From Cytophagales bacterium (GTDB lineage: Bacteria; Bacteroidota; Bacteroidia; Cytophagales; Bernardetiaceae), in the NCBI GenBank assembly GCA_013299045.1, contig JAAFJX010000016.1, positions 1 to 64,000 of the forward strand: a stretch of DNA of 64,000 nt. Direction: 5' to 3'. How positions within the stretch are numbered: the stretch's first letter is position 1; every line of letters begins with the position of its first letter. Made by a program: the position numbers and the translations under genes. The notes beneath the pieces were generated by a model. That model searched no databases and was not told where the DNA came from. It saw only the letters and a list, made by a program, of their open reading frames with translations. Of this stretch, positions 1-30,960 are shown piece after piece.

Positions 1-95
1 TGTGCTAATTTGCGATAAAAATTATCTTTGGCAACCAAGTCATTAAGACAAACTTGGTAAAAGATTTTTTGACTAATGTTTTTTCTTCCTTGCAT
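1..95 (-). pseudogene. transposase N-terminus (IS1182/DUF772 type), partial
   Basis: Reading the minus strand from an ATG at 95 gives a protein start with the segments ISQKIFYQVCLNDLV and DNFYRKLA. These match the opening of IS1182-family DDE transposases, where this region precedes the DUF772 domain. The frame is still open at the window edge, so it is entered as partial and not as proven broken. The two sister copies lose the frame soon after the same region. Assignment rests on recognising the motif, not on a database search. Confidence 0.55.
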
Positions 96-219
96 AAGCC
101 AAAAATATGCAATTTTAAGCGTATAAACAAATAAAAATCAAGATAATATGTCATATTTTTTGGCATTTTTTTGCAGAATGAAATTAGTTTTGTATTTTTG
201 AAAAGCAAGTTGTGCAACA
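1..219 (-). mobile_element. IS1182-like element, right-end copy 1, cut by window edge
   Basis: This is the terminal part of a repeat also present at 3342-3768 and 7477-7755. Its outer end at 208-219 carries the terminal inverted repeat AGTTGTGCAACA. The interior up to the window edge is nearly identical to copy 2. It encodes the start of a transposase on the minus strand. Because the element runs off the left edge, this copy could be full length, whereas the other two are internally deleted. Confidence 0.7.
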
Positions 220-227
220 AGCACATG

Positions 228-350
228 GGCTTGGCGCAAGTGGGGCTAAAGTGCTAAATTTGGGCTTTTGAATGTATATTGGGGCAATGTACTGAATTTG
301 GGCTTTTGTGCTGGTTTGCCCCACCTGCGCCAAGCCTTTTCCGTTAGCGG
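228..350. repeat. attC-like inverted repeat, cassette boundary 1
   Basis: The left arm at 228-246 (GGCTTGGCGCAAGTGGGGC) and the right arm at 318-336 (GCCCCACCTGCGCCAAGCC) are complementary over 19 bases with one mismatch. They enclose a 71-base spacer. The right arm is followed by CCGTTAGCGG at 341-350, and the same right half recurs at 1205-1297. The layout resembles an integron attC hairpin, but the core sites do not fit RYYYAAC/GTTRRRY. It sits directly beside IS copy 1 and 27 bases before the methyltransferase start. Confidence 0.7.
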
Positions 351-3341: not shown

Positions 3342-3768
3342 TGTTGCACAACTACGACAAAAATTCAAAAACTAAGAATTTCAAAAAATTTCGGTTTGCA
3401 TAAAACCATTCTGAGCGAGGCTAAAAATATTGAGGGCATTAAATTGTTGTTTTGCTGAAAAAACAAACACAACAGGGTCAATAGATTCTTGACCTTCTGT
3501 TCCGTAATAATGAGCAGTTTTTCTATAAATAAACTGTAAATCAAGCACTTGTGATAATTTGCGATAAAAATTATCTTTGCCAACCAAGTCATTAAGACAA
3601 ACTTGGTAAAAGATTTTTTGACTAATGTTTTTTCTTCCTTGCATAAGCCAAAAATATGCAATTTTAAGCGTATAAACAAATAAAAACCAAGATAATATGT
3701 CATATTTTTTGGCATTTTTTTGCAGAATGAAATTAGTTTTGTATTTTTGAAAAGCAAGTTGTGCAACA
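3342..3768 (-). mobile_element. internally deleted IS1182-like element, copy 2
   Basis: This 427-bp element is bounded by a 12-bp perfect terminal inverted repeat, TGTTGCACAACT at 3342-3353 and AGTTGTGCAACA at 3757-3768. It carries only the first part of a transposase gene on the minus strand, joined directly to the distal end of the element, so it cannot transpose alone. It would count as a MITE-like derivative of a longer IS. It separates the acetyltransferase operon from the convergent oxidoreductase gene. Confidence 0.75.
3381..3644 (-). pseudogene. truncated IS1182-type transposase
   Basis: From an ATG at 3644 the minus strand encodes the N-terminal segment with ISQKIFYQVCLNDLV, DNFYRKLSQVLDLQFIYR and a GTEGQESIDPVV block. 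This is the beginning of the DUF772 region of IS1182-family transposases. After SIDPVV the frame enters unrelated sequence (VFSAKQQFNALNIF) and stops. The DDE catalytic core is entirely absent. The open frame therefore is a deletion fusion, not a working gene. Confidence 0.65.
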
Positions 3769-3805
3769 AGCCCCTGTCTATAAGCCAGCAACCATGCTAA
3801 CCCAA

Positions 3806-4417
3806 CTATCTGCGAACAACTTTAAATGCCATATCACGACCGTAACCTTGCATAATAGCCAAATTTATCCACGATAAAGCAAATTTTTCTAACAATTCAA
3901 CTTTGTCGGACTTCCCAAAATCAATGCAAGAACCAAAGCCACAATCTAAGGCAAGTTGCTTGGCAACAGATTTTGCATTTTCACTATTACCTGCCATAAA
4001 CATATCAATTCCTTCGCCTTTATAGACAGGGTTCAACATATTTTCAAAACCTGTGGTATTGAAACATTTTACAATTTCTGCTTTCGTTTTATCAGCCAAA
4101 CAATGATAAACTGTTTTGTACGGTTCTGGGCTTTTCATCACTGCATTTGTGGCATCAATAATTGTTTTGCCTGAAACATCGTCCAGTTGTTCCAAAATTT
4201 CAAAAATGGCGGTTGGCGGTGTGGCTATCAAAATGACTTCTGATTTTGCAACAGCTTCATTGATTGAATACACACTCGTATTTTCATTTTTCAAAAGGTC
4301 TTGCCCTTTGAATTTGTTTACATCTTGCACACCTAAATTTATGGTATGTCCTTTTTGGGACCAGTTGGTCGCTAATGCACCGCCTACATTTCCAGTGCCA
4401 ATAATTGCTATGTTCAT
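3806..4417 (-). CDS. NADPH-dependent F420-reductase-like oxidoreductase
   Basis: The 203-residue protein opens with the dinucleotide-binding motif IAIIGTGNVGGALA (residues 3-16) and contains ILIATPP and IIDATNA, the pattern of the NADP oxidoreductase/coenzyme F420-dependent family (COG2085). Members bind NADPH; the second substrate is usually unknown in bacteria without F420. It is the last gene of the minus-strand operon 6976 to 3806, 21 bases after the bestrophin gene. The end of the gene lies next to IS copy 2, and the last residues, DMAFKVVRR, may be the native terminus or slightly shortened. Confidence 0.8.
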   Translation of the reverse strand: MNIAIIGTGNVGGALATNWSQKGHTINLGVQDVNKFKGQDLLKNENTSVYSINEAVAKSEVILIATPPTAIFEILEQLDDVSGKTIIDATNAVMKSPEPYKTVYHCLADKTKAEIVKCFNTTGFENMLNPVYKGEGIDMFMAGNSENAKSVAKQLALDCGFGSCIDFGKSDKVELLEKFALSWINLAIMQGYGRDMAFKVVRR

Positions 4418-7476: not shown

Positions 7477-7755
7477 CGTTGCACAACTACGATAAAAATT
7501 CAAAGACCAAGAATTTCAAAAAATTTCGAGGGCTTAATATTGCGCTCTTGAGGGCATTAAATTGTTGTTTTGCTGAAAAAAACAAGCACAACAGGGTCAA
7601 TAGATTCCTGACCTTCTGTTCCGTAATAATGAGCAGTTTCTCTGTAAATAAACTGTAAATCAAGCACTTGTGCTAATTTGCGATAAAAATTATCTTTGGC
7701 ATTTTTTTGCAGAATGAAATTAGTTTTGTATTTTTGAAAAGCAAGTTGTGCAACA
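7477..7755 (-). mobile_element. twice-deleted IS1182-like element, copy 3
   Basis: This 279-bp derivative has the ends CGTTGCACAACT (7477-7488) and AGTTGTGCAACA (7744-7755). Compared with copies 1 and 2 it lacks about 133 bp; the junction at about 7690-7700 reads CTTTGGCATTTTTTT and lies exactly at a TTTGGC/TTTTGGC microhomology present at both sides in the longer copies. The deletion removes the transposase start codon while keeping the DNFYRKLAQVLDLQFIYR segment. Flanking ACAT occurs on both sides and may be a short target duplication. Confidence 0.72.
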
Positions 7756-7869
7756 AGCACATCGTATTGGCAATAGCGGGGCTGACGTGGTAAATTGAAC
7801 ATTTGTGCTTCTATCAACATTTGTGGTAAAAATCCCCACCTTCGCCAAGCCTTTTCCGTTGTAGGCAAT
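7756..7869. repeat. attC-like repeat, cassette boundary 3 (degraded)
   Basis: After IS copy 3 the sequence ATTGGCAATAGCGGGGC is a diverged left arm, and CCCCACCTTCGCCAAGCC followed by TTTTCCGTTGTAGGCAAT at 7834-7869 is the right half. The organisation matches boundaries 1 and 2. The left arm starts the same few bases from the IS end as in boundary 1 (AGCACAT precedes both). Confidence 0.55.
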
Positions 7870-7967
7870 CCATCATATACCGCAGCATTCACTTTTTGGG
7901 CTAACGGTTTCGTATTCCATTGAAACAGATTTTTAGTATTTTTAAGCACGCTTTGCAAGGCCGATTT

Positions 7968-9153: not shown

Positions 9154-9205
9154 TAGTCGTCCATTAAAAGGCATTTGTTATCAATGAATTATTATTTAAT
9201 TTTGA
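9154..9205 (+). repeat. fragment of MITE left end
   Basis: TAGTCGTCCATTAAAA matches the terminal repeat of the MITE family seen at 15641, 20565, 30800 and 61515 with one change. The next 30 bases resemble the family only weakly. It looks like a decayed left end in the gap before the first GLPGLI gene. Confidence 0.4.
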
Positions 9206-9252: not shown

Positions 9253-10143
9253 ATGAAACACAAGTCTTTAATTCTGCTCCTATTCTCTGTTTTTCAAGCC
9301 CAACTGGCCTTTGGCCAAAGCCCCAACATTGCGGTAGATTACTTTGTAACAGTTAATAAACCTTTTGGGGCTGACAACACCAAACAGATATATACCTTGA
9401 ATCTCGTCAATAATGAATCTCTTTATTTTAGTAATGGACAAGATGATAGCCTCAGCCAGTTCATCAATAGTGGGAACAATGCCGAAAGAGTTGAGCTAAG
9501 CGGACAAACTATGGCTAAACTGAGTGATAACCATTTTGCCTCTCTCGCTATTGACAAATTCTATAAAAACTATTTGCGAGATACGCTAATTTTTAATGAC
9601 CTATTGGGCTCTGAACCTCTTGTAGTAGGAGAAAAAATATCAATTTTTAACTGGAATGTATTGCCCAACAAAGACACTACGATATTGGGTTATCCATGCC
9701 AATCAGCCACTACGAATTTCCGCGGCAGAGAGTATCTTGCCTATTTTAGCCCTAAACTCAATAATTTTGGCGGCCCTTGGAAATTTGACGGCTTGCCTGG
9801 CCTCATCTTACAGGTTCAGAGCGCCGATAACTTTTTTATCATTGAGCCGCTCAAGGTGGCCTTGAATACCCATCTTGCGCCCATACAAAATCCGTACAAG
9901 GCGATTAAGAAAAAAAACGCAATTTCTAGCTGGGAGCAGTTTGTTGATATTTATACTGAGCAGTTGCTTGCTAGGTATAGATATGCCATGTCAAAAGCAA
10001 CCCGAAGCACAACATTTTTTTCGATTGATATCAAAACCAATAGAATTGAAGATTTAGGTATTGGCATCGTTGATAAAACAACCGTGAAAGTGCTTGATAG
10101 CAAACTTAAAGCGAAAAAAGATGCTCAAAAAAAGAAGAAGTAA
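9253..10143 (+). CDS. GLPGLI family protein, paralogue 1
   Basis: This 296-residue secreted protein has a signal peptide ending AFG-Q and the family-defining segment FGGPWKFDGLPGLI near residues 172-185. It also shows LGYPCQSATTNFRGR and AYFSPKLNNFGGPW, shared with the paralogues at 11480 and 16314. GLPGLI proteins (TIGR01200) are a Bacteroidota family of unknown function, commonly encoded beside TonB-type receptors. The C-terminus is a lysine-rich tail (KKDAQKKKK). It begins a run of secreted-protein genes that leads to the receptor at 12980. It is followed 118 bases later by a small secreted protein gene. Confidence 0.9.
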   Translation: MKHKSLILLLFSVFQAQLAFGQSPNIAVDYFVTVNKPFGADNTKQIYTLNLVNNESLYFSNGQDDSLSQFINSGNNAERVELSGQTMAKLSDNHFASLAIDKFYKNYLRDTLIFNDLLGSEPLVVGEKISIFNWNVLPNKDTTILGYPCQSATTNFRGREYLAYFSPKLNNFGGPWKFDGLPGLILQVQSADNFFIIEPLKVALNTHLAPIQNPYKAIKKKNAISSWEQFVDIYTEQLLARYRYAMSKATRSTTFFSIDIKTNRIEDLGIGIVDKTTVKVLDSKLKAKKDAQKKKK

Positions 10144-10261
10144 TCTCTTGTGCAGATGTGCCTTGAAAGCCTACTACGGCACAAAAAACATCTTCTGGGC
10201 TTTTGCCCAATTCACCCTTGATAAAATACAGAATTCCGTTAATCCCCCCAAAAAAGCTCTT

Positions 10262-10759
10262 ATGAAAGCCTATTGTGTCTCCATTTTGCTATTCGCAACC
10301 GTTTTTTTTGCCAATGCCAAAGAGGCTGCTGAAAAAATAAAATTTGAAGACATGGTGTCAGGAAATCCACCAACTGAACTTTGTTTACAAGACTCAGGGC
10401 TTAGAACATGGTCAGTTTCTATTAAAAAGGATAAAAGGACTTACTCTTACACCATAACAGCCAGCCCTGATTTCAGATTAAGTGGGAGTAATGGTGAAGA
10501 AATTATGGCTGCCTTCAAGGAAGCCGTTGAGAAAGTTTATAAAAAGAAGCTTGAAAAAGTAGATGGCAATTACCCAGTGAGAGCAAAGGCTGAAGGCTTT
10601 ATAACCATAAAAACTGAAGACCCCAAAAATCCAATAACAATGACCATGCGCGTTACAGATACCAATACGAGCAATGAAGCATTGAACAATGAAGTTCTTA
10701 AAACGCAAGGCATACTAAGAGAAATCCTTAAAAAAAAGGAGGAAAAGAAAAAACAATAA
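10262..10759 (+). CDS. small secreted protein, GLPGLI-locus family, paralogue 1
   Basis: The 165-residue product starts with a signal peptide (MKAYCVSILLFATVFFANA). It shares with the products of 12411-12911 and 17327-17821 a sequence pattern: an aromatic (R/K)TY(S/T)YT strand, then about 20 residues later FKEA(V/I)..(V/A)(Y/N)KK, then a Lys/Glu-rich C-terminus. I know no named family. An upstream start at 10094 would overlap the GLPGLI gene and hide the signal peptide, so the ATG at 10262 is chosen. One such gene follows each GLPGLI gene, suggesting that the two proteins work together at the outer membrane. Confidence 0.7.
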   Translation: MKAYCVSILLFATVFFANAKEAAEKIKFEDMVSGNPPTELCLQDSGLRTWSVSIKKDKRTYSYTITASPDFRLSGSNGEEIMAAFKEAVEKVYKKKLEKVDGNYPVRAKAEGFITIKTEDPKNPITMTMRVTDTNTSNEALNNEVLKTQGILREILKKKEEKKKQ

Positions 10760-11033
10760 CGACTGCCCCGCAAGAAATAGCCATGAGTTGAGCTGTGAGC
10801 CATTTCTTTAAGGGGGGGAATCTACAAAAGAATAAAAAACTGCTGTAGTTCTCTGGGTTTGTGATAAAAAAGTAAATAATTTTCTAAAAAAAAATTGCCT
10901 GAAATTTGGAGGAGTTAATTTTTTTTTTTTTTGTGCGTCAAAAGTGTAAGGCGTATTACAAACCCTGTATTCTCGTATTGCATAATTTGACATACTTAAA
11001 ACAATGTTCAAATTTTAATTTTACTTTAAAAAC

Positions 11034-11282
11034 ATGAAAAAGTATGTTTTGTTGGCTTGCTTATTAGCGAGCGCCACATTTGCCAGCGCAAAAAGTGCTG
11101 AAGAAGATAAAAAAGTTGTTGCTGTAGCGGCAGAAGCTAAAAAAGTAGTAGCTCCACCAACAGTAGTAAGGGTTCCATGTTTCACGATAGTAGGCGACGA
11201 TATATATGCTACTACTGGCTCTGGCGCAACTTATGAAGAAGCATTGAAGAATTGTAAGCTTGGACTTGGAACAATGCTATAG
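11034..11282 (+). CDS. small secreted two-cysteine protein
   Basis: The 82-residue product has a signal peptide (MKKYVLLACLLASATFASA), a Lys/Ala/Val-rich linker and a C-terminal domain with two Cys (VPCFTIVGDDIYATT and EEALKNCKLGLG) that could form a disulphide. It may be a short relative of the other small proteins of the locus, since TYEEALKNC resembles their EEAFKAAF helix. A run of 14 T lies at 10919-10932 about 100 bases upstream. A hairpin with arms AACCCTTG/CAAGGGTT at 11333-11360 follows but lacks a T-tract. No function can be assigned. Confidence 0.6.
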   Translation: MKKYVLLACLLASATFASAKSAEEDKKVVAVAAEAKKVVAPPTVVRVPCFTIVGDDIYATTGSGATYEEALKNCKLGLGTML

Positions 11283-11479
11283 AGGAAGCCCTGAATAGCA
11301 AACGTCTTTAACAAGTAGTAGAATTCAAAAGTAACCCTTGTTCTACTAAAAGCAAGGGTTGCTTGTATGGAGCAATCTTAAAACATATATATTTCTGATA
11401 TTTTTGTCCATTTCCCCCTGCTTTTTAAATTTTAAATCATAACACTAAGGATAATCAAATGCTTTAATTGTTAAAAATC

Positions 11480-12367
11480 ATGAAAACGAAGTTGCTATTT
11501 CTATCATTTCTTCTTACTTTGCAAATGCCTTTTGCCTTTGCCCAAAGCCAGCGTATTGCAATAGACTATATGGTAACGGTCAATACTAATTTTGCGATTG
11601 CGAGTACAAGAAGCACCCATCATTTGTACATACTGAACCATGAATCCATATATTTCAAGGATTCAAAAGATAGCATCAATCAATTCATTAATAGAGACCC
11701 CAACAACACCAACACTGTACAGCTAGGTTCAAGGACTCTGTTCAAGCTAAGTGATAACCATTATGCGTCTTTTGATATGATTCAGCTCTATAAAAATTAC
11801 GAGCAGGACAAACTCTTACTTCAAGAAGACTTATCTGGTAAATCAGTAGTATTGCAAGAAGATTTGACTATTTTTAATTGGACTATCTTACCCAATCAAG
11901 ATACTTTAATATTGGGTTATCCATGCAAAACAGCAACTACAGACTTTAGAGGTAGAAAATATAAGGCTTATTTTAGCCCTAAACTCAATAATTTTGGCGG
12001 CCCTTGGAAGTTTGAGGGCTTACCAGGCCTCATTTTGCAGGTTCAGAGCGAGGACAATTATTTTGTCATTGAGCCAATTAAAATTGCACTTAATGCGCAA
12101 TTAGAGCCTATTCAAAACCCTTACAAAGACACCAAAGAGGAAATTATTGTAGGCTGGGAAGCATTTAGAGAGGCTAAAATCAATCGATTATTGACCAAAT
12201 ATAGGGCTGCGGTAGCTAAAACAGGAGACTTAAATTTTTCTATAAATCCCAATGGCGATAGAATAGAAAATATTGAGATAGGTATTGTAGATGCGAAAAC
12301 CATCAAAGCGATGGAAAAAGCCCAAAAGGCGAAAAAAAAGAAGAAAAAAAATAGTACCACTTTCTAA
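11480..12367 (+). CDS. GLPGLI family protein, paralogue 2
   Basis: The 295-residue secreted protein carries a signal peptide ending FAFA-Q and the signature FGGPWKFEGLPGLI. The block LGYPCKTATTDFRGRKYKAY is close to the other two paralogues, and it is more like paralogue 3 than paralogue 1 in the N-terminal TRSTHHLYIL region. The C-terminal tail has a run of six Lys from an A-rich stretch (KKKKKKNSTTF). ATG 11480 is chosen over a TTG at 11468. The next gene, a small secreted protein, begins 43 bases later and then the receptor gene follows, giving the order GLPGLI, small protein, receptor that is repeated at 16314-20546. Confidence 0.9.
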   Translation: MKTKLLFLSFLLTLQMPFAFAQSQRIAIDYMVTVNTNFAIASTRSTHHLYILNHESIYFKDSKDSINQFINRDPNNTNTVQLGSRTLFKLSDNHYASFDMIQLYKNYEQDKLLLQEDLSGKSVVLQEDLTIFNWTILPNQDTLILGYPCKTATTDFRGRKYKAYFSPKLNNFGGPWKFEGLPGLILQVQSEDNYFVIEPIKIALNAQLEPIQNPYKDTKEEIIVGWEAFREAKINRLLTKYRAAVAKTGDLNFSINPNGDRIENIEIGIVDAKTIKAMEKAQKAKKKKKKNSTTF

Positions 12368-12410
12368 CTTGGGTATTGCATTTAATCATTAACCATCAAA
12401 TCTTTTACTT

Positions 12411-12911
12411 ATGAAAAAGTATCTAATAATAGCTTGTCTATTGGCATTCCCCATAGCCGCTAATGGACAAAGCACTGATAACCAAGATAAAAAAAATATA
12501 GCGGATTCGTTAGGGTCTCTCGCCTACACCATGACTGAGTTGTATGGTGAAAAAAGCTACACTTATACTATAAAAGTAACATCAAAAAATCCTGAAGAGC
12601 ATATTTATTCTGGATTCTCAAAAGAAAAGTTACAAGAGGCGTTTAAAAAGGCGGTTACTAAAGTCAATAAAACTAAGATTAAAAAACTAGAAGATGGCAC
12701 AGAAAAAAAAGCATTGGGTAGAGGTGTTTTCTCTGTTGGGTCAGGAACAGGGCCAGACCAGGGCTTTTTTAATGGGGTTAAGACATCAGAAAGTTTAGAA
12801 GTTACAGAAAAAAATGCCAGCGATGCAGATTTGTGCATTGAAGCAAAGGCAACTTTTAGAGAGTTCATGATTATTCAGCTTGATATGCTTAAAAAAAAGG
12901 AGGACAGATAG
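12411..12911 (+). CDS. small secreted protein, GLPGLI-locus family, paralogue 2
   Basis: The 166-residue protein has a signal peptide (MKKYLIIACLLAFPIAANG) and the family pattern KSYTYTIKVTSKNPEEHIY, then LQEAFKKAVTKVNKTK. It is closest to the product of 17327-17821, with which it shares spacing of the aromatic strand, the NPE motif and the amphipathic helix. There is no Cys pair and no domain I recognise. It lies between GLPGLI paralogue 2 and receptor 1, in the same orientation and probably the same transcript. Confidence 0.7.
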   Translation: MKKYLIIACLLAFPIAANGQSTDNQDKKNIADSLGSLAYTMTELYGEKSYTYTIKVTSKNPEEHIYSGFSKEKLQEAFKKAVTKVNKTKIKKLEDGTEKKALGRGVFSVGSGTGPDQGFFNGVKTSESLEVTEKNASDADLCIEAKATFREFMIIQLDMLKKKEDR

Positions 12912-12979
12912 TTTGGTCTGTGGTCGCTAGGCTCTGCTTAGTAGCAGTTTAGTTTTCTATATAAAACCCAAAATCGGTA

Positions 12980-15622
12980 ATGCGCTTTTTTTTCGTTTTT
13001 AGCCTCTTGCTTTTCACTTCCTCCGCGCTCCGCGCTCAAGCCCTCACAGGCACTGTTACAGACAAAGAGGGCACGCCAATAGGCATGGCTAGCATACTCA
13101 TCAAAGAGGCTGGGCAGTCCCAGAATATCCTTGAGTTCGTGCAGGCCAAGGGAGGCAAGTATAGCCTCAAATTAACCAGAACCTACCAGCGGCTGTGCGT
13201 AGAGGCTACCGCCTTTAGCCATACGCCCGACTCCGTCATCATAGAAAACCCACAGAAAGACAGTACTTATACACTCAATTTCAAGCTCTTACTCGTGGTG
13301 CAAGACCTCAAGGAAGTGGTGGTCATTGGCAAGAGAAAGCCCTATGAGGTGAAGGAAGACACCGTGTCTTACAACGTAAGCGCTTACCGAGATGGCACAG
13401 AACGCAAAATTGAAGACATTATCAAAAAACTGCCCGGCATCAAGGTTAATGAAAATACAGGACAAATTGAGTACAAGGGCAAGCCTGTAGAAGCAGTAAC
13501 GCTTGAAGGCGACGACCTTTTTGGACAGAACTACACCATAGGCACTAAGAATATCAACGTGGATATGGTGGAGCAGGTGCAAGCCATAGACAATTACACG
13601 GCCAATCCTCTGCTCAAAGGCATAGAAGAAGGCGGCAAGGTGAGCCTCAACCTCAAGCTAAAAAAAGGGAAGTTTGATTTTTCGGGGAGTATTTCGGCAG
13701 GTGTTGGCCTAGCCTCAGGCGAGAAGTTTATGCGGAGTGCCCATAGCTCACTTTTGGGCATTAGCCGCAACTACAAATCCTTTGGCTCATTCTCTCACAA
13801 CAATATGGGTATTAACAACTCTCCTTTTGACTATTTTGGGGGCACAGGCAGTATAGAGCGCCTCATGGCCGAAGACAACTACTATGCCGATAAGGTCATT
13901 CCCGAGAGTTCTTTCGGGACGCTGCTCGGCAACGACCGCGCCAATATCAACAATCAAGTGTCGGGCAGCCACCACCTTTTTTTCAGAGTGGGCAAGCGCA
14001 AACGCCTCAGTGTTAAGAACAATCTTTACTTTTTGACTGATGATATTTTTGCTTACCAGCTCTCTACGAACCAGAATACGATTGGCGGGCAAACCTTCAT
14101 GACCTCTGATGAACGCAGTACCCACAAAAGACCCTTGCAGTACCGAGGCGACTTAGAAATGAAATACAATACGTCTAAAACATCTTTGTTGGAATATACT
14201 TTTAGAGTCAGCCAAGAAAGTATCCAAACCCCTATGCAAACACGCATGAACGGCACCGAAGTTTTTGATTCGCGGCTCTCGTCCCGTGATTTTTATTTGA
14301 GGCAAAAGATGCTTTTTACCAAAAAATTGGGTTCTAAACGTGCTTTGCAGCTCAATGCCTTGCAAACCACGAACCGTGTGCCGCAGGTACTCACTTTTGC
14401 GCCCTCAGTTTTGAATCCCGATAGCGCCAAAACCGACCGACAAGAAAGCAGAGCACAAAAAGATTTTTTGGAAGCAAAAGCAACCCTGCTCGGCGCTGTT
14501 GGGCCAGCCAAATACACGCTTTCTGCTGGCTTTATTCAGAACAAAAACCCATATAAATCTCTACTAACCAGTATTTTTTCGGTTAGTAATGACCTGACTT
14601 ATTTGCAACAAAGTGCCTATCAGCGCGCTTCCTACCTGCACAGCTACCGCAAATGGCAAATGAAAGTGGCTTATGAAGCCAGTTATCTTTATCAAGAAAT
14701 TACTGGCCTAAAAGAAAACCAAAAACAAGGAAGAATAGTACGAGAACCTTCTTTGGGCTTGAGTTACAAAGCCTCGAAATGGTCTAAAATCAATGGACAA
14801 GTCAGCTACAATCAAAACCCCTTAACAGAGAATAATCTATTTGAAAATGAGGTGCTTATCAATAACCGAAGCCTCATCACAAACGCACCAAATTTGCAGC
14901 TACAAAACCAAACAGTCTACAGCCTAAACTACTTGCATCATAATATGGATAAGTTTTTTAGGCTGACTGCCATAATCATGTATCAGGAATCGGTGGGTGG
15001 CTTCTTTTCAAACCTAACCGTTAAAGAACGCACTACCCAGACCAATAGCTTTTTCTTACCTGTTGGCACGGACAACCTGAGTTTTAATTTTATGACAGGC
15101 AAATACTTTACTGGGCTCGGGATAGACATGACATTGAACGGCAGCTATATGGTGTCAAACTATAAAAACATACTCAATGATTCTGATTTGCGCACCAACC
15201 AAATGCGTAGTTTGACTACAAGTATGGATTTAGGTACGTCTTTTCTGATTCCGGTCAATTTTAAAAATTCGGTGAGCTATAACCGCAATGAGTCCAGCAA
15301 CGCAGAGAGCGGCACTTTCAGAAACGATTTTTTGTCCAACTCTTCCAAAATCATTTTTGCGCCAAATAAGGCATTGAATGTATCGCTTATCTCGGATTAT
15401 TACGTGCCGAGCCTGCAAAAAATGAAAGAAAATTATTGGTTTTTAGATTTTTATGTCAGCTACAATCCTCAAAAGAGCAAGTTTAGTTGGGCTTTTTCTG
15501 CCAATAATCTTTTGAACAAAACAGTCTTTAAGCAAGTTCAAACGAGTGATTTTGCAACGACCACCTTTGAGAGCAATCTTTTACCGCGCTACTTCATGGC
15601 CTACATTGAGTATAGGTTTTAG
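12980..15622 (+). CDS. TonB-dependent-type outer-membrane receptor 1
   Basis: The 880-residue protein has a signal peptide ending RAQ, a carboxypeptidase-regulatory-like domain (about residues 20-105), a plug domain (about 115-235) with GTERKIEDIIKKLPGIKV and KGKPVEAVTLEGDDLFGQ, and a long barrel ending YMAYIEYRF with the expected terminal Phe. This is the group of Bacteroidota receptors often next to GLPGLI genes; the ligand is unknown. Residues about 35-270, several shorter blocks and the last 40 residues are nearly identical to receptor 2 at 17907, while the rest of the barrel is diverged. A MITE begins 19 bases after the stop. Confidence 0.88.
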   Translation: MRFFFVFSLLLFTSSALRAQALTGTVTDKEGTPIGMASILIKEAGQSQNILEFVQAKGGKYSLKLTRTYQRLCVEATAFSHTPDSVIIENPQKDSTYTLNFKLLLVVQDLKEVVVIGKRKPYEVKEDTVSYNVSAYRDGTERKIEDIIKKLPGIKVNENTGQIEYKGKPVEAVTLEGDDLFGQNYTIGTKNINVDMVEQVQAIDNYTANPLLKGIEEGGKVSLNLKLKKGKFDFSGSISAGVGLASGEKFMRSAHSSLLGISRNYKSFGSFSHNNMGINNSPFDYFGGTGSIERLMAEDNYYADKVIPESSFGTLLGNDRANINNQVSGSHHLFFRVGKRKRLSVKNNLYFLTDDIFAYQLSTNQNTIGGQTFMTSDERSTHKRPLQYRGDLEMKYNTSKTSLLEYTFRVSQESIQTPMQTRMNGTEVFDSRLSSRDFYLRQKMLFTKKLGSKRALQLNALQTTNRVPQVLTFAPSVLNPDSAKTDRQESRAQKDFLEAKATLLGAVGPAKYTLSAGFIQNKNPYKSLLTSIFSVSNDLTYLQQSAYQRASYLHSYRKWQMKVAYEASYLYQEITGLKENQKQGRIVREPSLGLSYKASKWSKINGQVSYNQNPLTENNLFENEVLINNRSLITNAPNLQLQNQTVYSLNYLHHNMDKFFRLTAIIMYQESVGGFFSNLTVKERTTQTNSFFLPVGTDNLSFNFMTGKYFTGLGIDMTLNGSYMVSNYKNILNDSDLRTNQMRSLTTSMDLGTSFLIPVNFKNSVSYNRNESSNAESGTFRNDFLSNSSKIIFAPNKALNVSLISDYYVPSLQKMKENYWFLDFYVSYNPQKSKFSWAFSANNLLNKTVFKQVQTSDFATTTFESNLLPRYFMAYIEYRF

Positions 15623-15640
15623 CCCAAATGCAGTTTTAAA

Positions 15641-16109
15641 TAGTTGTCCCTTAAAAAATATATAAGGTGTTTATTGTCAGTAAATTAAACAAGAACTTCA
15701 TCTTTTAAATATCTTATTCTTTAGCCTATTTTGTCAAATAACTGGCAAGGTCTCAAGTGCTTCTTACGGCCTGCCACGCCTCGCATCAGACAAAAGCGAA
15801 TGGCTCAAAGGTCAGAGGATTAGATTTTCTGTGCAACTCTGTTTTGTAAGAGAGTGAATCAAAGAAAAAGCCATTCGCTGGGTTAGATGAAAAAAGCCTG
15901 TTTTTTTCATCTAAATTGGCCTTTTGCGAGGCTTGATTTTTTGCTATGCCCTACGGTCGGAACTTTCAGCTCGCGCTTCAGTTCTGCATCAAGGCAAAAA
16001 GTAGAGAAGAGAAGTCTATCAAAAGCCGTTAAAGTGCTCCCAAAATAGGCAAGCTATCCTCCTCAAATTTAGCTTACATTTATTGAATGTACTTTTTAAG
16101 GGACGACTA
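15641..16109 (+). mobile_element. TA-flanked MITE-like element, full-length copy M1
   Basis: A 469-bp element with ends TAGTTGTCCCTTAAAAA and TTTTTAAGGGACGACTA, each bounded by TA, consistent with the TA target duplication of IS630/Tc1/mariner-type elements. It has no long ORF. Inside are a hairpin with arms TTAGATGAAAAAA and TTTTTTCATCTAA (15883-15914) and an inverted pair AGCGAATGGCT/AGCCATTCGCT (15795-15805, 15869-15879). A full-length copy lies in opposite orientation at 61515-61990. Together with 16110-16252, where I see nothing else, this fills the gap between receptor 1 and the next GLPGLI gene. Confidence 0.75.
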
Positions 16110-16252
16110 CTTATTTTTCACGAAAATCTTGGACAACACTAAAGATATGAATTTATAGGTATAGATAAAAGTTAAGCCTAAATATACAAGTATTTTTGAT
16201 GCGGAAAACCTAAATCAAAAAACCATTATTTTTTTTTAGACTATTACATCTA

Positions 16253-16295
16253 TTATCTTTGCGAATGCTTTTGTAAAGAGCATTCGCAAAGATAA
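16253..16295 (+). promoter_or_regulatory. perfect 17-bp palindrome overlapping promoter motif
   Basis: TTATCTTTGCGAATGCT (16253-16269) is exactly complementary to AGCATTCGCAAAGATAA (16279-16295), with a nine-base loop. The left arm contains TATCTTTG, a Bacteroidota -7 element. By symmetry the right arm carries the same element on the minus strand. It ends 18 bases before the ATG of GLPGLI paralogue 3, so it could be an operator, a bidirectional promoter or a 5-prime hairpin. Confidence 0.6.
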
Positions 16296-16313
16296 ATAAA
16301 AACAACGATTGAT

Positions 16314-17234
16314 ATGAAAAATAAAAAAATTTATATATGCTTGCTTTTTATGTTGCAAATGCCTTTTGCCTTTGCTCAAACGCCCAGTATTGCTGTTGAA
16401 TACTTGGTAACAGTCAATACAAAAAACGTTGTAACGAGTACAAGGAGCACAAATTTTTTGCATATCCTCAAGGACGAATCTATCTATTTCAAAGACCCCA
16501 AAGATAGTTTGAAGCAGTTTATACACGGCGACCCCAATAATATGAGTATTCTATCGCGTGAGGGTAGAGTCTCTCAGGTCAAACTGAGCGACAATAGCTA
16601 TGCGCCTATGGATATGATTCGGCTCTATAAAAATTATACTCGTGATACACTCATTCTCAATGAAATAATGGTTAATCGTACAGTAGTTTTTGGCGAAAGC
16701 TTGTCTATTTTTAATTGGACTATTTTACAAGATAAGGACACTACGATATTGGGTTATCCATGCCAAATGGCCACTACAGACTTCCGCGGCAGACGATACA
16801 AGGCTTATTTTAGCCCCAAAATCAATAATTTTGGCGGCCCTTGGAAGTTTGAGGGCTTGCCTGGCCTTATCTTGCAAGTAGAAAGTATGGATAACTATTT
16901 AACTATTGAACCACAAAAAATTGTATTGAACGCCACATTTGAGCCTGTTAAAAACCCTTACACCGATGCCAAAGAGCCAATTCTTTCGGGCTGGGAGTCC
17001 TTTAGAGAAGCCCAAATTGATAAACTAATAAAGAATTACAAGTTTATGATGGCCTCCATGCCTAAAACGTCTGGTTCTTCAGTAAGTGTATCCATAGATA
17101 CGAGTGGCGGGACTATAGAGGATTTGGGAATAGGGGTAATAGATGCAGCAACAATACGTGCCATGGAAAACACCCAAAAAGAGAAAGAAACGACCAAAAA
17201 GAAAAAGAAGAAAGAGAAGAAAAATAAAAAATGA
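16314..17234 (+). CDS. GLPGLI family protein, paralogue 3
   Basis: The 306-residue secreted protein has a signal peptide ending FAFA-Q and the signature FGGPWKFEGLPGLI. The LGYPCQMATTDFRGRRYKAY block matches paralogues 1 and 2, and the N-terminal half is closest to paralogue 2 (TSTRSTNFLHIL). Its C-terminal 20 residues are almost all Lys, Glu and Asn, the longest basic tail of the three. It is preceded by the perfect palindrome at 16253-16295, which the other two lack. It begins the second GLPGLI/small protein/receptor module. Confidence 0.9.
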   Translation: MKNKKIYICLLFMLQMPFAFAQTPSIAVEYLVTVNTKNVVTSTRSTNFLHILKDESIYFKDPKDSLKQFIHGDPNNMSILSREGRVSQVKLSDNSYAPMDMIRLYKNYTRDTLILNEIMVNRTVVFGESLSIFNWTILQDKDTTILGYPCQMATTDFRGRRYKAYFSPKINNFGGPWKFEGLPGLILQVESMDNYLTIEPQKIVLNATFEPVKNPYTDAKEPILSGWESFREAQIDKLIKNYKFMMASMPKTSGSSVSVSIDTSGGTIEDLGIGVIDAATIRAMENTQKEKETTKKKKKKEKKNKK

Positions 17235-17326
17235 TTGTTGCGGTTTGACCATTGACGGTCAACAGTAGTCCTTTTTATTTAAATTCAGCTTAAAATAAAC
17301 TTTTAATCAGTCAAAACTTAGTTATT

Positions 17327-17821
17327 ATGAAACTTTTTGTTTTAATGACTTGCTTGGCAGTGAGCGCCACCCTTGCCAATGCCAAAAGCATAACACTGTC
17401 CAAAGCACAAGCCTTTGCTATTGCCACCTCAGACTCCGCGCTACAAACCAGGACTTTTGTTATGACCGAGAAAATGAGCGAAAGGACTTACACTTATACC
17501 ACAACAGCTAAGGCAAAAAATCCTGAACAATGGATTTACTATGGCCTTACCGAAGAAGCGTTCAAAGCTGCTTTCAAAGAGGCTATTGTCAAAGCCAATA
17601 AAAAGATACCGAAGGAATTTAAAAATGAGCCTGCTCAAAAAACTGAGGGCAAAGGTTTAGTATTCTTTGAAACAAACACAGAAAATAGTGAAACGACAAT
17701 AGCCCTTAGTGTTACAGGGAAAAATGTAAGTGATAGAGCTTTGCATCTTGTCGCTTCGATGACTTACGTAGAGTTTAATAACATAATAAAAGAAAAGCGT
17801 AAAAAACTTAAAATTAAATAG
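17327..17821 (+). CDS. small secreted protein, GLPGLI-locus family, paralogue 3
   Basis: The 164-residue protein begins with a signal peptide (MKLFVLMTCLAVSATLANA). It has the family pattern RTYTYTTTAKAKNPEQWIYY, EEAFKAAFKEAIVKANKK and a basic terminus (KEKRKKLKIK). The first gene in this family (10262) is more distant. It is encoded between GLPGLI paralogue 3 and receptor 2, mirroring 12411-12911 in module 1. The conserved position argues for a role linked to the receptor or to the GLPGLI protein, for example as a periplasmic or surface partner, but this is inference. Confidence 0.7.
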   Translation: MKLFVLMTCLAVSATLANAKSITLSKAQAFAIATSDSALQTRTFVMTEKMSERTYTYTTTAKAKNPEQWIYYGLTEEAFKAAFKEAIVKANKKIPKEFKNEPAQKTEGKGLVFFETNTENSETTIALSVTGKNVSDRALHLVASMTYVEFNNIIKEKRKKLKIK

Positions 17822-17906
17822 CCCTCAAAATGATAGTCCATGCCATGAATTATGGGCTATAAAGTTTATTGGTAATCATTTTCAAAAGAGGGGGCAAGAA
17901 AAAAAA

Positions 17907-20546
17907 ATGCGTTTTGTTTTACTTCTTTGCTTAGTACTGTTGGCCTTATCCACGCTTCAAGCCCAGACTCTCATCGGTACTGTTACCAATAGCGACGGTT
18001 CTCCTATCAGCATGGCTAGCATACTCGTCAAAGAGGCTGGGCAGTCCCAGAATATCCTTGAGTTCGTGCAGGCCAAGGGAGGCAAGTACAGCCTCAAATT
18101 GACCAGAACCTACCAGCGGCTGTGCGTAGAGGCCACTGCCTTTAGCCATGCGCCCGACTCCGTCATCATAGAAAACCCACAGAAAGACAGTACTTATACG
18201 CTCAATTTCAAGCTCTTATTTGTGGCGCAGGAGCTAGAGGAGGTGGTGGTGGTAGGCAAAAAAAAGCCCTATGAGGTAAAAGGCGATACTGTTTCCTACA
18301 ACGTAAGTGCCTACCGAGATGGCACAGAACGCAAAATTGAGGACATTATCAAAAAACTGCCCGGCATCAAGGTTAATGAAAATACAGGACAAATTGAGTA
18401 CAAGGGCAAGCCTGTAGAAGCAGTAACGCTTGAAGGCGACGACCTTTTTGGGCAGAACTACACCATAGGCACTAAGAATATCAACGTGGATATGGTGGAG
18501 CAGGTGCAAGCCATAGACAATTACACGGCCAATCCTCTGCTTAAAGGCATAGAAGAAGGCGGCAAGGTGAGCCTCAACCTCAAGCTAAAAAAAGGGAAGT
18601 TTGATTTTTCGGGGAGTATTTCGGCAGGTGTTGGCCTAGCCTCAGGCGAGAAGTTTATGCGGAGTGCCCATAGCTCACTTTTGGGCATTAGCCGCAACTA
18701 CAAATCCTTTGGCTCACTCTCACATAACAACATAGGGCAAAACAGGGCACCCTTCGACTATTTTAGCGGAACATTGAATATTGAGCAGCTCATGGCAGAG
18801 GAAAACTACTACGCTTCAAAAGTACTGACAGAGAGTATTTTTTCTTCTATACTGGGCAATCAACGCGCCAATATCAATAAGCAATTATTTGGCAACCACC
18901 ATCTTTTTTTCAGGGTAGGCAAGCGCAAACGCCTCAGCATTAAAAATAACTTATATTTTCTGAAAGACGATATTTTTGCTTACCAGCTTTCAAAAAGCCT
19001 CAACACGATTGCTAGCCAGACCTTCACCACCTCAGATGAACGCAGCACGCACAAAAGACCCATACAGTGCCGAGGCGACTTAGAAATGAAATACAATACG
19101 TCTAAAACGTCTTTGCTGGAATACACTTTTAGAATCAGCCAAGAAAGTATCCAAACACCCATGCAAACGCGCATGAACGGCACCGAAGTTTTTGATTCGC
19201 GGCTCTCGTCCCGTGATTTTTATTTGAAACAGAGCCTACTCTTTACTAAAAAAATAGGCTCTAAGCGCGCTTTGCAGCTCAATGCCTTGCAAACCACGAA
19301 CCGTGTGCCGCAGGTGCTCACCTTCACGCCATCGGTTTTGAACCCTGACTCAGCTTTGAGCGACCAGCAGAAAAGTCGTTTCCAGAAAGATTTTTTAGAG
19401 GCTAAAGGGACGTTATTGGGCGCTATTGGGCGAGGCAAATACGCCCTCACGGTTGGCCTTGTGCAGGATAAAACACCTTATAGCTCAGCGCTAAACAGCA
19501 GTTTTTCCATAACAAATCAGCTAACCTACCTAATTCAGAAAGCCTATCAGCGTTCTTCTTACACACACCAATATCGCAAATGGCGAATGAGAGTAGCCTA
19601 TGAAGCCAGCTATCTTTATCAGGAGCTAATAAGCCAAGAGACACAAAATAAAGGGCGCTTTGTCATAGAACCTTCATTGGTTATAAATTATGAAATGTCG
19701 AAGTGGTCTCAGCTTACTGGAGGGGTTAGTTATAACCAAAACCCGCTTACAGAAAATTATCTATTTGAAAATGAGGTATTGATTAACAACCGAGCTAGCC
19801 GCACCAATACACCAAGTTTGAAATTACAAAACCAAACCTCCTACAGATTGCAATACAACCAAAACAATATGGATAATTTTTTTAGACTTTCTGCCGGACT
19901 TGTGTACAATGAATCGGTAGGTAGTTTCTTTTCAGATTTTGTCATAATGGAGCGCACCACGCAAATTAATAATTTTTTTCTGCCAGAACACATTGATAAC
20001 CTGAATTTTAATTTCTCAACTGCCAAGTTCTTTGACGGACTGGCCATAGATGCCAGTATAAAAGCTAATTATAATCTTTCCAATTATAAGAATATTCTCA
20101 ACGATTCGGAGTTACGCGATAATAAGATGCGTAGTTTGACTACAAGTATGGATTTAGGTACGTCTTTTCTGATTCCGGTCAATTTTAAAAATTCAGTCAG
20201 CTACCAGCTCAGTGAATCCAGCAATGCAGAGAGCGGTACATTCAGAAATGAGTATCTGTCTCATTCAGCCAGCATTTTTTTTAGCCCAAATAAGATTTGG
20301 CAAATGTCTTTAAGCTCTGATTACTACCTACCCAATTTGCAAAAAATATCCGAAACTTATTGGTTTTTAGATGCAAATCTCAACTACCGCCCAGCCAAGA
20401 GCCAATTTTCTTTTTCTATTTCTGCCAATAATCTTTTGAACAAAACAGTCTTCAAGCAAGTTCAAACGAGTGATTTTGCAACGACCACCTTTGAGAGCAA
20501 TCTTTTACCGCGCTACTTCATGGCCTACATTGAGTATAGGTTTTAG
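17907..20546 (+). CDS. TonB-dependent-type outer-membrane receptor 2
   Basis: The 879-residue paralogue of receptor 1 has the same layout: signal peptide ending QAQ, carboxypeptidase-regulatory-like domain, plug with KLPGIKVNENTGQIEYKG, and a barrel ending YIEYRF. Identity with receptor 1 is close to complete in residues about 35-270, around ERSTHKRP and the following 90 residues, in RSLTTSMDLGTSFLIP, and in the last 40 residues. Between these blocks the barrel strands and loops differ strongly. The shared block continues past the stop codon into the MITE downstream. This pattern suggests duplication followed by gene conversion and loop diversification. Confidence 0.88.
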   Translation: MRFVLLLCLVLLALSTLQAQTLIGTVTNSDGSPISMASILVKEAGQSQNILEFVQAKGGKYSLKLTRTYQRLCVEATAFSHAPDSVIIENPQKDSTYTLNFKLLFVAQELEEVVVVGKKKPYEVKGDTVSYNVSAYRDGTERKIEDIIKKLPGIKVNENTGQIEYKGKPVEAVTLEGDDLFGQNYTIGTKNINVDMVEQVQAIDNYTANPLLKGIEEGGKVSLNLKLKKGKFDFSGSISAGVGLASGEKFMRSAHSSLLGISRNYKSFGSLSHNNIGQNRAPFDYFSGTLNIEQLMAEENYYASKVLTESIFSSILGNQRANINKQLFGNHHLFFRVGKRKRLSIKNNLYFLKDDIFAYQLSKSLNTIASQTFTTSDERSTHKRPIQCRGDLEMKYNTSKTSLLEYTFRISQESIQTPMQTRMNGTEVFDSRLSSRDFYLKQSLLFTKKIGSKRALQLNALQTTNRVPQVLTFTPSVLNPDSALSDQQKSRFQKDFLEAKGTLLGAIGRGKYALTVGLVQDKTPYSSALNSSFSITNQLTYLIQKAYQRSSYTHQYRKWRMRVAYEASYLYQELISQETQNKGRFVIEPSLVINYEMSKWSQLTGGVSYNQNPLTENYLFENEVLINNRASRTNTPSLKLQNQTSYRLQYNQNNMDNFFRLSAGLVYNESVGSFFSDFVIMERTTQINNFFLPEHIDNLNFNFSTAKFFDGLAIDASIKANYNLSNYKNILNDSELRDNKMRSLTTSMDLGTSFLIPVNFKNSVSYQLSESSNAESGTFRNEYLSHSASIFFSPNKIWQMSLSSDYYLPNLQKISETYWFLDANLNYRPAKSQFSFSISANNLLNKTVFKQVQTSDFATTTFESNLLPRYFMAYIEYRF

Positions 20547-20564: not shown

Positions 20565-20764
20565 TAGTTGTCCCTTAAAAAATATATAAGGTGTTTATTG
20601 TCAGTAAATTAAACAAGAACTTCATCTTTTAAATATCTTATTCTTTAGCCTATTTTGTCAAATAACTGGCAAGGTCTCAAGTGCTTCTTACGGCCTGCCA
20701 CGCCTCGCATCAGACAAAAGCGAATGGCTCAAAGGTCAGAGGATTAGATTTTAAGGGACGACTA
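20565..20764 (+). mobile_element. internally deleted MITE copy M2
   Basis: This 200-bp copy has the same ends and TA flanks as M1. It is identical to M1 up to GAGGATTAGATTTT and then jumps to AAGGGACGACTA, so about 270 bp are missing across a short T-run shared by both edges. It belongs to the block duplicated with the receptor gene. The remaining 130 bases before the YicC gene show nothing more. Confidence 0.72.
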
Positions 20765-30799: not shown

Positions 30800-30960
30800 T
30801 AGTCGTCCTTTAAAATACATCTAAAAGATTTTTTATCAGTGAGTTAAACAAGCATTTCATCTTCAAAATTTCTTAGTTTTTAACCTATTTTGTCAAAAAA
30901 CTGGCAAAATCTAAAGGGCTTTTTAAGTCCTGCACTGCCTCGCATCAGACAAAAAAGCAG
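30800..30960 (+). mobile_element. degenerate MITE copy M4
   Basis: The left end TAGTCGTCCTTTAAAA and about 140 following bases match the MITE family, including TTTTGTCAAA..ACTGGCAA and GCCTCGCATCAGACAAAA. It is clearly more diverged than M1-M3. No right end is recognised; the sequence to 31101 holds nothing else I can name. Confidence 0.55.

What the first reader, a model, noticed from the sequence alone, without database searches (positions are those of the whole stretch)
9253..20546. Repeated GLPGLI / small secreted protein / receptor modules
Seen: three GLPGLI paralogues, each followed by a member of one small secreted protein family (10262, 12411, 17327), and two receptors that each follow such a pair. 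The small family shares an aromatic TYTYT strand, an NPE motif in two members and an amphipathic helix. Known: GLPGLI genes often lie near TonB receptors, with no function assigned. The constant presence of the small protein suggests a third component of the system.
Basis: partly seen in the sequence, partly recalled or inferred. Interest (0 to 1): 0.74.

Follow-up and report, generated by a model that had tools for sequence, protein, structure and literature searches.

The report
Hypervariable secreted peptides with GLPGLI partners
In many Bacteroidota, genes for the widespread but unexplained GLPGLI proteins come with a tiny exported peptide whose start tends to be conserved while its business end and the neighbouring GLPGLI change together between relatives, which suggests a matched pair such as a weapon and its antidote, or a cargo and its carrier.

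Summary
The modules are real: three GLPGLI genes, three small secreted paralogues and two receptors. The ~165-aa family was found only in this cluster: nothing in 10 other family genomes, only weak hits away from GLPGLI in 9 of 290 other order genomes, and it is missing from the four other GLPGLI loci of the same genome. A short secreted, usually Cys-containing peptide lies directly upstream of receptor-linked GLPGLI genes in 27 of 76 operons (5 of 154 control genes) and 25 of 63 in a second collection (8 of 91). Its leader tends to be conserved, its mature part is hypervariable. At orthologous loci mature peptide and GLPGLI diverge together while the receptor is far better conserved; core and GLPGLI similarity co-vary after correcting for the receptor (partial r 0.64, p 0.0004; 10 loci). 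Peptide-less operons show no such acceleration. GLPGLI is predicted to have a LolA/RseB-like fold. Best reading: a cognate peptide-GLPGLI cassette served by an outer-membrane barrel, most likely effector plus immunity/holdase. Biochemical function is untested.

The parts
9253..10143 (+). GLPGLI protein 1 (296 aa, Sec-type signal)
   Evidence: TIGR01200 122.8 bits, cut-off 50
10262..10759 (+). ~165-aa small secreted protein 1, after GLPGLI 1; no receptor follows directly
   Evidence: paralogue of 17327, E 9.0e-10; no Pfam or NCBIfam family above cut-off
11034..11282 (+).
   Evidence: leader shared with peptides upstream of the contig 20 and contig 47 GLPGLI genes of the same genome (E 9.6e-6, 2.3e-4); 5'UTR and leader DNA 83% and 82% identical to the contig 20 copy, then 55%; L244, the best GLPGLI match, has an alike peptide in the same place
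11480..12367 (+). GLPGLI protein 2 (295 aa)
   Evidence: TIGR01200 128.6 bits; AlphaFold2 pLDDT 90.5, LolA/RseB/PNGase N-domain-like fold
12411..12911 (+). ~165-aa small secreted protein 2, between GLPGLI 2 and receptor 1
   Evidence: paralogue of 17327, E 4.8e-17
12980..15622 (+). Outer-membrane barrel (TonB-receptor-like) 1: carboxypeptidase-regulatory-like domain, plug-like region, barrel
   Evidence: 78% identical to receptor 2, mosaic: aa 161-240 and 841-880 99% nt identical, several barrel blocks 60-72%; CarboxypepD_reg below cut-off
16314..17234 (+). GLPGLI protein 3 (306 aa)
   Evidence: TIGR01200 125.6 bits
17327..17821 (+). ~165-aa small secreted protein 3
   Evidence: AlphaFold2: block means of pLDDT 77-97 from residue 41 on, two beta-hairpin-helix units (E40-50 E53-63 H76-92 / E107-117 E122-132 H136-160); best VIA Z 4.3
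17907..20546 (+). Outer-membrane barrel (TonB-receptor-like) 2

Best explanation
The locus belongs to a widespread Bacteroidota operon type with three parts: (1) a small Sec-exported peptide with a leader that tends to be conserved, a charged linker and a hypervariable, usually Cys-containing mature core; (2) its cognate GLPGLI protein, a periplasmic protein of predicted LolA/RseB-like bowl fold; (3) a better conserved TonB-receptor-like outer-membrane barrel that can be preceded by one or several peptide-GLPGLI pairs. Shown by computation: operon order, leader/core contrast, co-variation of core and GLPGLI, slower receptor change, predicted GLPGLI fold. Inferred: Sec exports the peptide, GLPGLI binds its own peptide in the periplasm, and the barrel moves the peptide across the outer membrane. 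I commit to the peptide being a diversifying effector used against close relatives, with GLPGLI as its specific immunity/holdase partner, and surplus GLPGLI copies acting like orphan immunity genes. In this window the 82-aa ORF is the standard peptide; the three ~165-aa proteins are a private, enlarged version placed after GLPGLI, and their kinship to the peptides is suggested by leader similarity and position only.
For: Peptide directly upstream: 27 of 76 receptor-linked GLPGLI operons against 5 of 154 other signal-bearing genes and 1 of 76 on the opposite strand of the same stretch (Fisher 1.4e-10, or 4.9e-9 after dropping three doubtful ORFs). Second collection: 25 of 63 against 8 of 91, antisense 1 of 63 (p 6e-6, or 2.5e-4 after dropping four doubtful ORFs). 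Leader against mature identity in one operon: L251 0.77-0.86 against 0.34-0.51, while the GLPGLI signal peptides there are 0.30-0.39 alike. Orthologous locus in two congeners (L143/L162): about 91% nt identity through flank, 5'UTR and leader, then lost (but for short stretches) over the mature peptide and most of the GLPGLI part, then about 92% through the receptor. L128/L277 (the same two loci as L342/L343): receptor 85%, GLPGLI 37%, mature peptide 24%. Ten loci of one genus: GLPGLI identity mean 0.38, highest 0.57, while receptors average 0.62 and reach 0.91; core~GLPGLI r 0.72, partial 0.64 given receptor, permutation p 4e-4. Median GLPGLI/receptor divergence ratio 2.14 in 30 pairs with peptides, 0.88 in 30 peptide-less pairs; non-redundant 12 against 12, p 0.005. 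Three peptide-GLPGLI pairs before one receptor in L251; repeated pairs in L158 and L283. Fold.
Against: No toxin domain or toxicity evidence: the ten peptides scanned match no Pfam or NCBIfam family above cut-off. 49 of 76 and 38 of 63 receptor-linked GLPGLI operons show no upstream peptide under my criteria, so GLPGLI must have a use without it. Leaders are not always conserved: 0.32 in L128/L277, 0.33-0.68 in L283. Core profile similarity across sets is demonstrable only for type I (7 of 34, against 2 of 680 shuffles); type II is weak, and a scan of 295 genomes with the type I profile found one strong hit, a seed. The Cys contrast is weaker in set 2 (24 of 26 against 17 of 25) than in set 1 (27 of 28 against 15 of 30). 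The ~165-aa family shows no sequence homology to the cores or between its own halves. Immunity proteins with a LolA-like fold are not known to me. GLPGLI divergence could also come from carrier-cargo co-evolution. Pair L071/L072 shows no acceleration (ratio 1.02).
Confidence: 0.4

Rival explanations
1. Cargo and carrier: the peptide is a surface-displayed or released product that is not a toxin (adhesin, antigen, metallophore or signal). GLPGLI is its dedicated LolA-like periplasmic carrier and the barrel its outer-membrane exit; variation comes from escape of phages, grazers or rivals.
For: GLPGLI fold closest to PNGase N-terminal domains (Z 14-15) and to VioE, MucB, LolA and RseB (Z about 10); pairing and co-variation fit a carrier as well as an immunity protein.
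Against: A general carrier need not diverge to 37-50% identity while the receptor stays 85-92% identical; surplus GLPGLI genes without peptides fit orphan immunity better.
Confidence: 0.32
2. One reading: the small protein is a fixed accessory subunit (lid or plug) of a nutrient-importing receptor, with GLPGLI as a further subunit.
For: The two window receptors differ mostly in barrel blocks (several 60-72% nt) while part of the plug-like region is 99% identical, as expected if outer parts meet a changing partner.
Against: Peptide core tracks GLPGLI after correction for the receptor (partial r 0.64); receptors 85-92% identical carry very different mature peptides; three peptide-GLPGLI pairs stand before one receptor in L251.
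Confidence: 0.12
3. Self-made ligand that is imported again: the peptide is a secreted scavenger (for example of a metal) taken back through the barrel and handed to GLPGLI.
For: Cys-containing small peptide next to a TonB-receptor-like barrel; peptide presence is clustered on the receptor tree (26 label changes against 40.8 in shuffles, 0 of 500 as low; near-copies add to this).
Against: A conserved receptor with a hypervariable peptide is the reverse of what a receptor-ligand pair should show; TonB dependence itself is unproven.
Confidence: 0.1
4. No functional link: chance signal-bearing ORFs upstream of GLPGLI, and a hypervariable spot that happens to include GLPGLI.
For: Control genes also have such ORFs in 5 of 154 and 8 of 91 cases; three set-1 and four set-2 calls look doubtful and were dropped in the conservative count.
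Against: Two collections, both p below 3e-4 even conservatively; antisense control 2 of 139; shared leaders and repeated pairs.
Confidence: 0.05

Closest known systems
GLPGLI family (TIGR01200 / PF09697 Porph_ging)
   Same: All three proteins are members by NCBIfam score.
   Different: No function is assigned; of three papers in the open library that hold the word, the two read by passage give gene-list or regulon mentions only; the third was seen as a listing.
LolA / RseB-MucB / VioE / PNGase F-II N-terminal domain fold
   Same: AlphaFold2 model aligns at Z 14-15 to the N-terminal parts of PNGF-II and another PNGase and about 10 to VioE, MucB, LolA and RseB; weak profile match to PNGF-II, E 0.0024.
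   Different: No glycosidase domain; LolA carries lipoproteins and RseB binds an anti-sigma factor (recalled), neither tested here.
Polymorphic toxin / immunity cassettes (PMC3482391; search listing and start of abstract seen)
   Same: Constant N-terminal part, exchangeable C-terminal part, co-varying adjacent partner gene, surplus partner genes (features of the known systems recalled).
   Different: Here the constant part is only a Sec-type leader, the whole peptide is mostly 58-130 aa, and no toxin domain is recognised.
Class II bacteriocins and microcins (features recalled)
   Same: Small secreted peptides beside a candidate partner gene.
   Different: Sec-type leader; no Pfam or NCBIfam bacteriocin model above cut-off in ten peptides.
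SusCD / RagAB receptors
   Same: Carboxypeptidase-regulatory-like domain on an outer-membrane barrel.
   Different: TIGR04056 far below cut-off in two of four scanned receptors and absent in the other two; SusD was not searched for.

Membership tests
GLPGLI (TIGR01200) | Score above curated cut-off (50 bits) | tested here: met
   122.8, 128.6 and 125.6 bits
GLPGLI (PF09697) | Score above Pfam gathering cut-off (25 bits) | tested here: not met
   14.7-17.9 bits; the same proteins pass the NCBIfam model
LolA/RseB-like fold | Half-open antiparallel beta bowl | tested here: met
   predicted model only: Foldseek E 1.3e-4 to LolA 2w7q; Z about 10
LolA/RseB-like fold | Carrier or sensor function | not testable with these tools
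   needs biochemistry
TonB-dependent receptor | Plug and beta-barrel domain models | tested here: inconclusive
   CarboxypepD_reg, above its cut-off in one of the nine receptors scanned; Plug E 0.0045 in one of seven relatives; no barrel model
TonB-dependent receptor | TonB-dependent transport | not testable with these tools
   experiment
SusC/RagA (TIGR04056) | Curated score 368 bits | tested here: not met
   19.7 and 25.2 bits in two of four receptors, none in the other two
Polymorphic toxin/immunity system | Constant N-terminus, exchangeable C-terminus | tested here: met
   clear in L251, L143/L162 and the window's own genome; partial elsewhere: mean leader identity 0.49 against mature 0.26 in ten loci, leader 0.32 in L128/L277
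Polymorphic toxin/immunity system | Adjacent partner co-varies with the C-terminus | tested here: met
   (10 of 13 loci)
Polymorphic toxin/immunity system | Recognisable toxin domain | tested here: not met
   10 peptides, Pfam and NCBIfam
Polymorphic toxin/immunity system | Toxicity neutralised by the partner | not testable with these tools
   experiment
Curated bacteriocin / lanthipeptide / NVEALA-type peptides (names recalled) | Match to a curated precursor model | tested here: not met
   no hit above cut-off for 10 peptides
Class II bacteriocin export | Dedicated ABC exporter in the cluster | not tested
   neighbours not surveyed systematically
   0 of 10 other family genomes; 9 of 290 other order genomes with weak hits, E 0.003-0.01, 7 of these 9 starting in the signal peptide, none near a GLPGLI gene

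The most novel reading that the evidence does not exclude
GLPGLI, a large unexplained Bacteroidota family, is a class of periplasmic specificity/immunity proteins with a LolA-like fold. Each matches a hypervariable, conserved-leader, often disulfide-type secreted peptide (a conotoxin-like pattern), and matched peptide-GLPGLI cassettes are exchanged at constant outer-membrane receptor loci in an arms race between close relatives; solitary and arrayed GLPGLI genes are orphan immunity genes.
Probability: 0.35. Interest if true: 0.92.

Novelty: categorically new. Interest (0 to 1): 0.74.

Why it matters
GLPGLI genes occur in 38 of 79 sampled genomes of the window's order (E<=1e-10) and 33 of 148 across the phylum sample (E<=1e-20), with at least 17 in one genome (its scored candidates were capped), and I found no assigned role. 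A co-varying peptide partner turns 'function unknown' into a testable pair: does GLPGLI bind, carry or neutralise its own peptide? If the peptides are weapons, they would be an uncatalogued class of narrow-spectrum peptides in a phylum that dominates guts, soils and seas.

Tried and rejected
The ~165-aa profile finds no convincing family elsewhere; its longest weak hit, a 123-aa frame in L009, is a Lys-rich secreted protein without a GLPGLI gene nearby. Profile comparison of the ~165-aa family with the peptide cores, and of its two halves with each other, gives no homology, so my first idea that it is a doubled peptide core rests on predicted secondary structure and leader similarity only. A 38-position core profile is too short and variable for genome scans (10 of 295 genomes at E<=0.05, one strong hit, G019, whose peptide is a seed). 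Fold search of the ~165-aa model gave no Z above 4.3 (absence of a row excludes nothing). The search for related loci with the three window GLPGLI found nothing; a diverse alignment worked. The first-found upstream gap in L128/L277 is not clean: the 82% upstream match ends about 975 bp before the peptide, apart from a 72-bp piece.

Control problems: the control set scored 2 of 130 (type I) and 5 of 130 (type II) at 6 bits; by locus and position these are GLPGLI-linked peptides read from another start codon (L298, L168; L072, L160 twice, L168, L166), most of them seeds. In one search the window pair was compared within one locus (GLPGLI 1.00; the true value is 0.60) and L086, a degraded GLPGLI frame, was wrongly labelled as a peptide; both work against the result and were left in. 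L213/L214 was mispaired and corrected. Clusters with under 450 bp of upstream room were dropped from the counts (130 clusters became 128; number not printed). Signal peptides were called with a crude hydrophobicity rule of my own, ATG starts only, so the true fractions may be higher or lower. Three of 13 loci (L348, L353, L354) were left out because the peptide frame is broken or incomplete or its start was not called; the receptor match of L343, which was used, has one in-frame stop. L277 and L343 are one sequence, as are L128 and L342, so those two cases count once. In one search the L086 label was set by hand to 'none'.

Papers: searches. GLPGLI appears in 3 papers; passages of two were read. 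No paper describing a peptide partner turned up in these open-library searches; most subscription journals and preprints are not held there.
Full report
OBSERVATION. The window holds GLPGLI genes at 9253, 11480 and 16314 (TIGR01200 at 123-129 bits), small secreted paralogues at 10262, 12411 and 17327, and two outer-membrane barrels of 880 and 879 aa, 78% identical. The receptors are mosaic: residues 161-240 and 841-880 are 99% identical in DNA, several barrel blocks only 60-72%.

THE ~165-AA FAMILY IS PRIVATE. A three-row profile found it in 1 of 11 family genomes, the window's own. In 291 order genomes 10 had a match at E<=0.01: the window's own and 9 others at E 0.003-0.01, 7 of them starting in the signal peptide; none of these weak hits lies within about 1.5 kb of a GLPGLI gene. 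The same genome has four further GLPGLI loci (contigs 20, 42, 47, 73); at contigs 20, 42 and 47 GLPGLI runs into the barrel gene with a gap of 0-1 bp, and at contig 73 a 90-bp gap precedes a 663-aa ORF. So the small protein is not a constant partner. Its structure is predicted well from about residue 41 on, as two beta-hairpin-helix units, without a convincing PDB match.

A WIDER PEPTIDE COMPONENT. Relatives of the operon show a short signal-bearing ORF upstream of GLPGLI. I tested this on 120 regions: the window and 119 stretches fetched around GLPGLI or receptor hits in the own genome, family, order and class. Of 76 receptor-linked GLPGLI operons 27 have a signal-bearing ORF of 40-200 aa ending within 400 bp upstream, against 5 of 154 other signal-bearing genes in the same regions, 30 of 435 control genes of all kinds, and 1 of 76 on the opposite strand; 27 of 28 such ORFs have a Cys beyond residue 25, against 15 of 30 control ORFs. 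GLPGLI not linked to a receptor: 10 of 52. A second collection of 80 named loci gave 25 of 63 against 8 of 91 (23 of 280 for all control genes), antisense 1 of 63, Cys 24 of 26 against 17 of 25; not linked 5 of 22. Dropping doubtful ORFs (three and four) leaves p 5e-9 and 2.5e-4. The hypothesis arose from the first regions, which are part of the first set; the second set was drawn afterwards. On a FastTree tree of 130 receptors the peptide label is clustered (26 changes, shuffled mean 40.8, 0 of 500 as low; near-copies add to this), and the smallest starred set around the window receptors that reaches beyond the own genome has 10 of 11 peptide-bearing. Ten peptides match no Pfam or NCBIfam family above cut-off.

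ANATOMY OF THE PEPTIDE. Leader, charged linker, then a 35-45-aa core. Type I cores mostly carry four Cys in the pattern C-x(n)-C[G]-x(n)-C-x(n)-C (A7); a model from eight first-set cores finds 7 of 34 second-set peptides at 6 bits or more, against 2 of 680 shuffles and 2 of 130 controls, the latter being GLPGLI-linked peptides read from another start. Type II, to which the window ORF belongs, is weaker (4 of 34 at 4 bits against 22 of 680 shuffles). Descriptions such as 'hairpin' and 'helix' for the short peptides would be my reading of the sequence, not a prediction.

LEADER CONSERVED, CORE VARIABLE. In the window's genome the 11034 gene and the contig 20 peptide gene share 83% of the 40 bases before the start and 82% of the leader DNA, then 55%; none of 190 control pairs reached the first two values. 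In L251 (three peptide-GLPGLI pairs, a further GLPGLI, then one receptor) leaders are 0.77-0.86 identical, mature parts 0.34-0.51, while GLPGLI signal peptides of the same operon are only 0.30-0.39. L158 (five peptides, four GLPGLI, contig end before any receptor) has leaders at 0.45-0.82 and mature parts at 0.16-0.33; L283 has 0.33-0.68 and 0.20-0.28. The contrast is thus general but not always sharp.

PEPTIDE CORE AND GLPGLI CHANGE TOGETHER. Between two congeners (L143 with two GLPGLI genes, L162 with one) flank, 5'UTR and leader are 91% identical; homology is lost, apart from short stretches, over the mature peptide and most of the GLPGLI part, and returns at 92% from the last part of GLPGLI through the receptor. 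In L128/L277 the receptor is 85%, GLPGLI 37% and the mature peptide 24% identical; here the leader is only 32%, and the syntenic upstream match (82%) ends about 975 bp before the peptide apart from a 72-bp piece. In L083/L084 a peptide-GLPGLI-GLPGLI block is present in one and absent in the other, with a 95%-identical receptor. A genus-wide search found the receptor in 13 of 81 genomes, among them L342/L343, which are L128/L277 again; 10 of the 13 have a clean peptide and three have broken, incomplete or uncalled frames. Among the 10, GLPGLI identity averages 0.38 although receptors average 0.62 and reach 0.91; leaders average 0.49, mature parts 0.26, GLPGLI signal peptides 0.27. Core similarity (last 40 residues) correlates with GLPGLI similarity (r 0.72; partial 0.64 given receptor; permutation p 4e-4; 45 pairs). 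Over all 68 pairs with at least 60% receptor identity the GLPGLI/receptor divergence ratio has median 2.14 when both have a peptide (30 pairs), 0.88 when neither has (30), 1.33 when one has (8); non-redundant 12 against 12, p 0.005, with two mislabelled pairs left in that work against it. Rapid GLPGLI change is thus tied to the peptide. Whether it comes by recombination or by point change under selection was not resolved.

GLPGLI FOLD. A 60-sequence alignment gave a model at pLDDT 90.5. Foldseek's best hits are PNGF-II and another PNGase (E about 1e-7), then LolA, ependymin-related proteins, VioE and RseB; VIA-align gives Z 14-15 for the PNGases and about 10 for VioE, MucB, LolA and RseB. A bowl that binds hydrophobic ligands or peptides in known relatives (recalled) suits a protein that holds a peptide in the periplasm.

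MECHANISM. Shown by computation: gene order, leader/core contrast, co-variation, slower receptor change, predicted fold. Inferred: Sec export, binding of peptide by its own GLPGLI, passage through the barrel. Effector-immunity explains hypervariability, pairing and surplus GLPGLI genes; carrier-cargo explains the fold and pairing. I rate them 0.40 and 0.32.

WHERE THE WINDOW FITS. The 82-aa ORF plus GLPGLI 2 plus receptor 1 is a standard module. The three ~165-aa proteins are an elaboration found only in this genome among those searched, downstream of each GLPGLI. L075 also has a secreted ORF (110 aa) between GLPGLI and receptor, so this gene order is not unique.

NOVELTY. No curated Pfam or NCBIfam family, no convincing PADLOC model (one weak hit, E 0.013, to 12411) and no paper found in six open-library searches describes it. 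If the effector reading is proved, the generic kind (bacteriocin with immunity) is known, but its components would be new to it; I mark it categorically new on that understanding.

Noticed in passing
window 15641-16109, 20565-20764, 9154-9169, 30800-30815, 61515-61530: Seven copies of TAGTCGTCCCTTAAAA (up to 2 mismatches; 0.03 expected), two pairs of them inverted around about 470 and 200 bp just after each receptor: MITE-like elements or mobile remnants.
   Followed up: partly
window 1-260, 3458-3809, 7577-7796: Repeated blocks of 102-227 bp, 73-98% identical, overlapping small ORFs at 3365-3791 and 7557-7958; looks like a repeated gene or mobile fragment.
   Followed up: no
L281: A GLPGLI locus in a record titled Staphylococcus sp. 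MAG; the other titles are Bacteroidota or an unclassified bacterium, so the record is probably mislabelled.
   Followed up: no
L348, L353, L354: Peptide genes with broken, incomplete or uncalled frames beside open GLPGLI and receptor frames: possible decay of the peptide with the partner kept.
   Followed up: partly
window 12980-15622 and 17907-20546: Part of the plug-like region (aa 161-240) and the last 40 residues 99% identical in DNA against 60-72% in several barrel blocks: looks like gene conversion of these parts or diversification of the barrel.
   Followed up: partly
L207 (196-aa ORF before two GLPGLI genes): A secreted protein with what looks by eye like an internal duplication, upstream of a GLPGLI pair and receptor in another family: perhaps a second, separate enlargement of the small component.
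   Followed up: no
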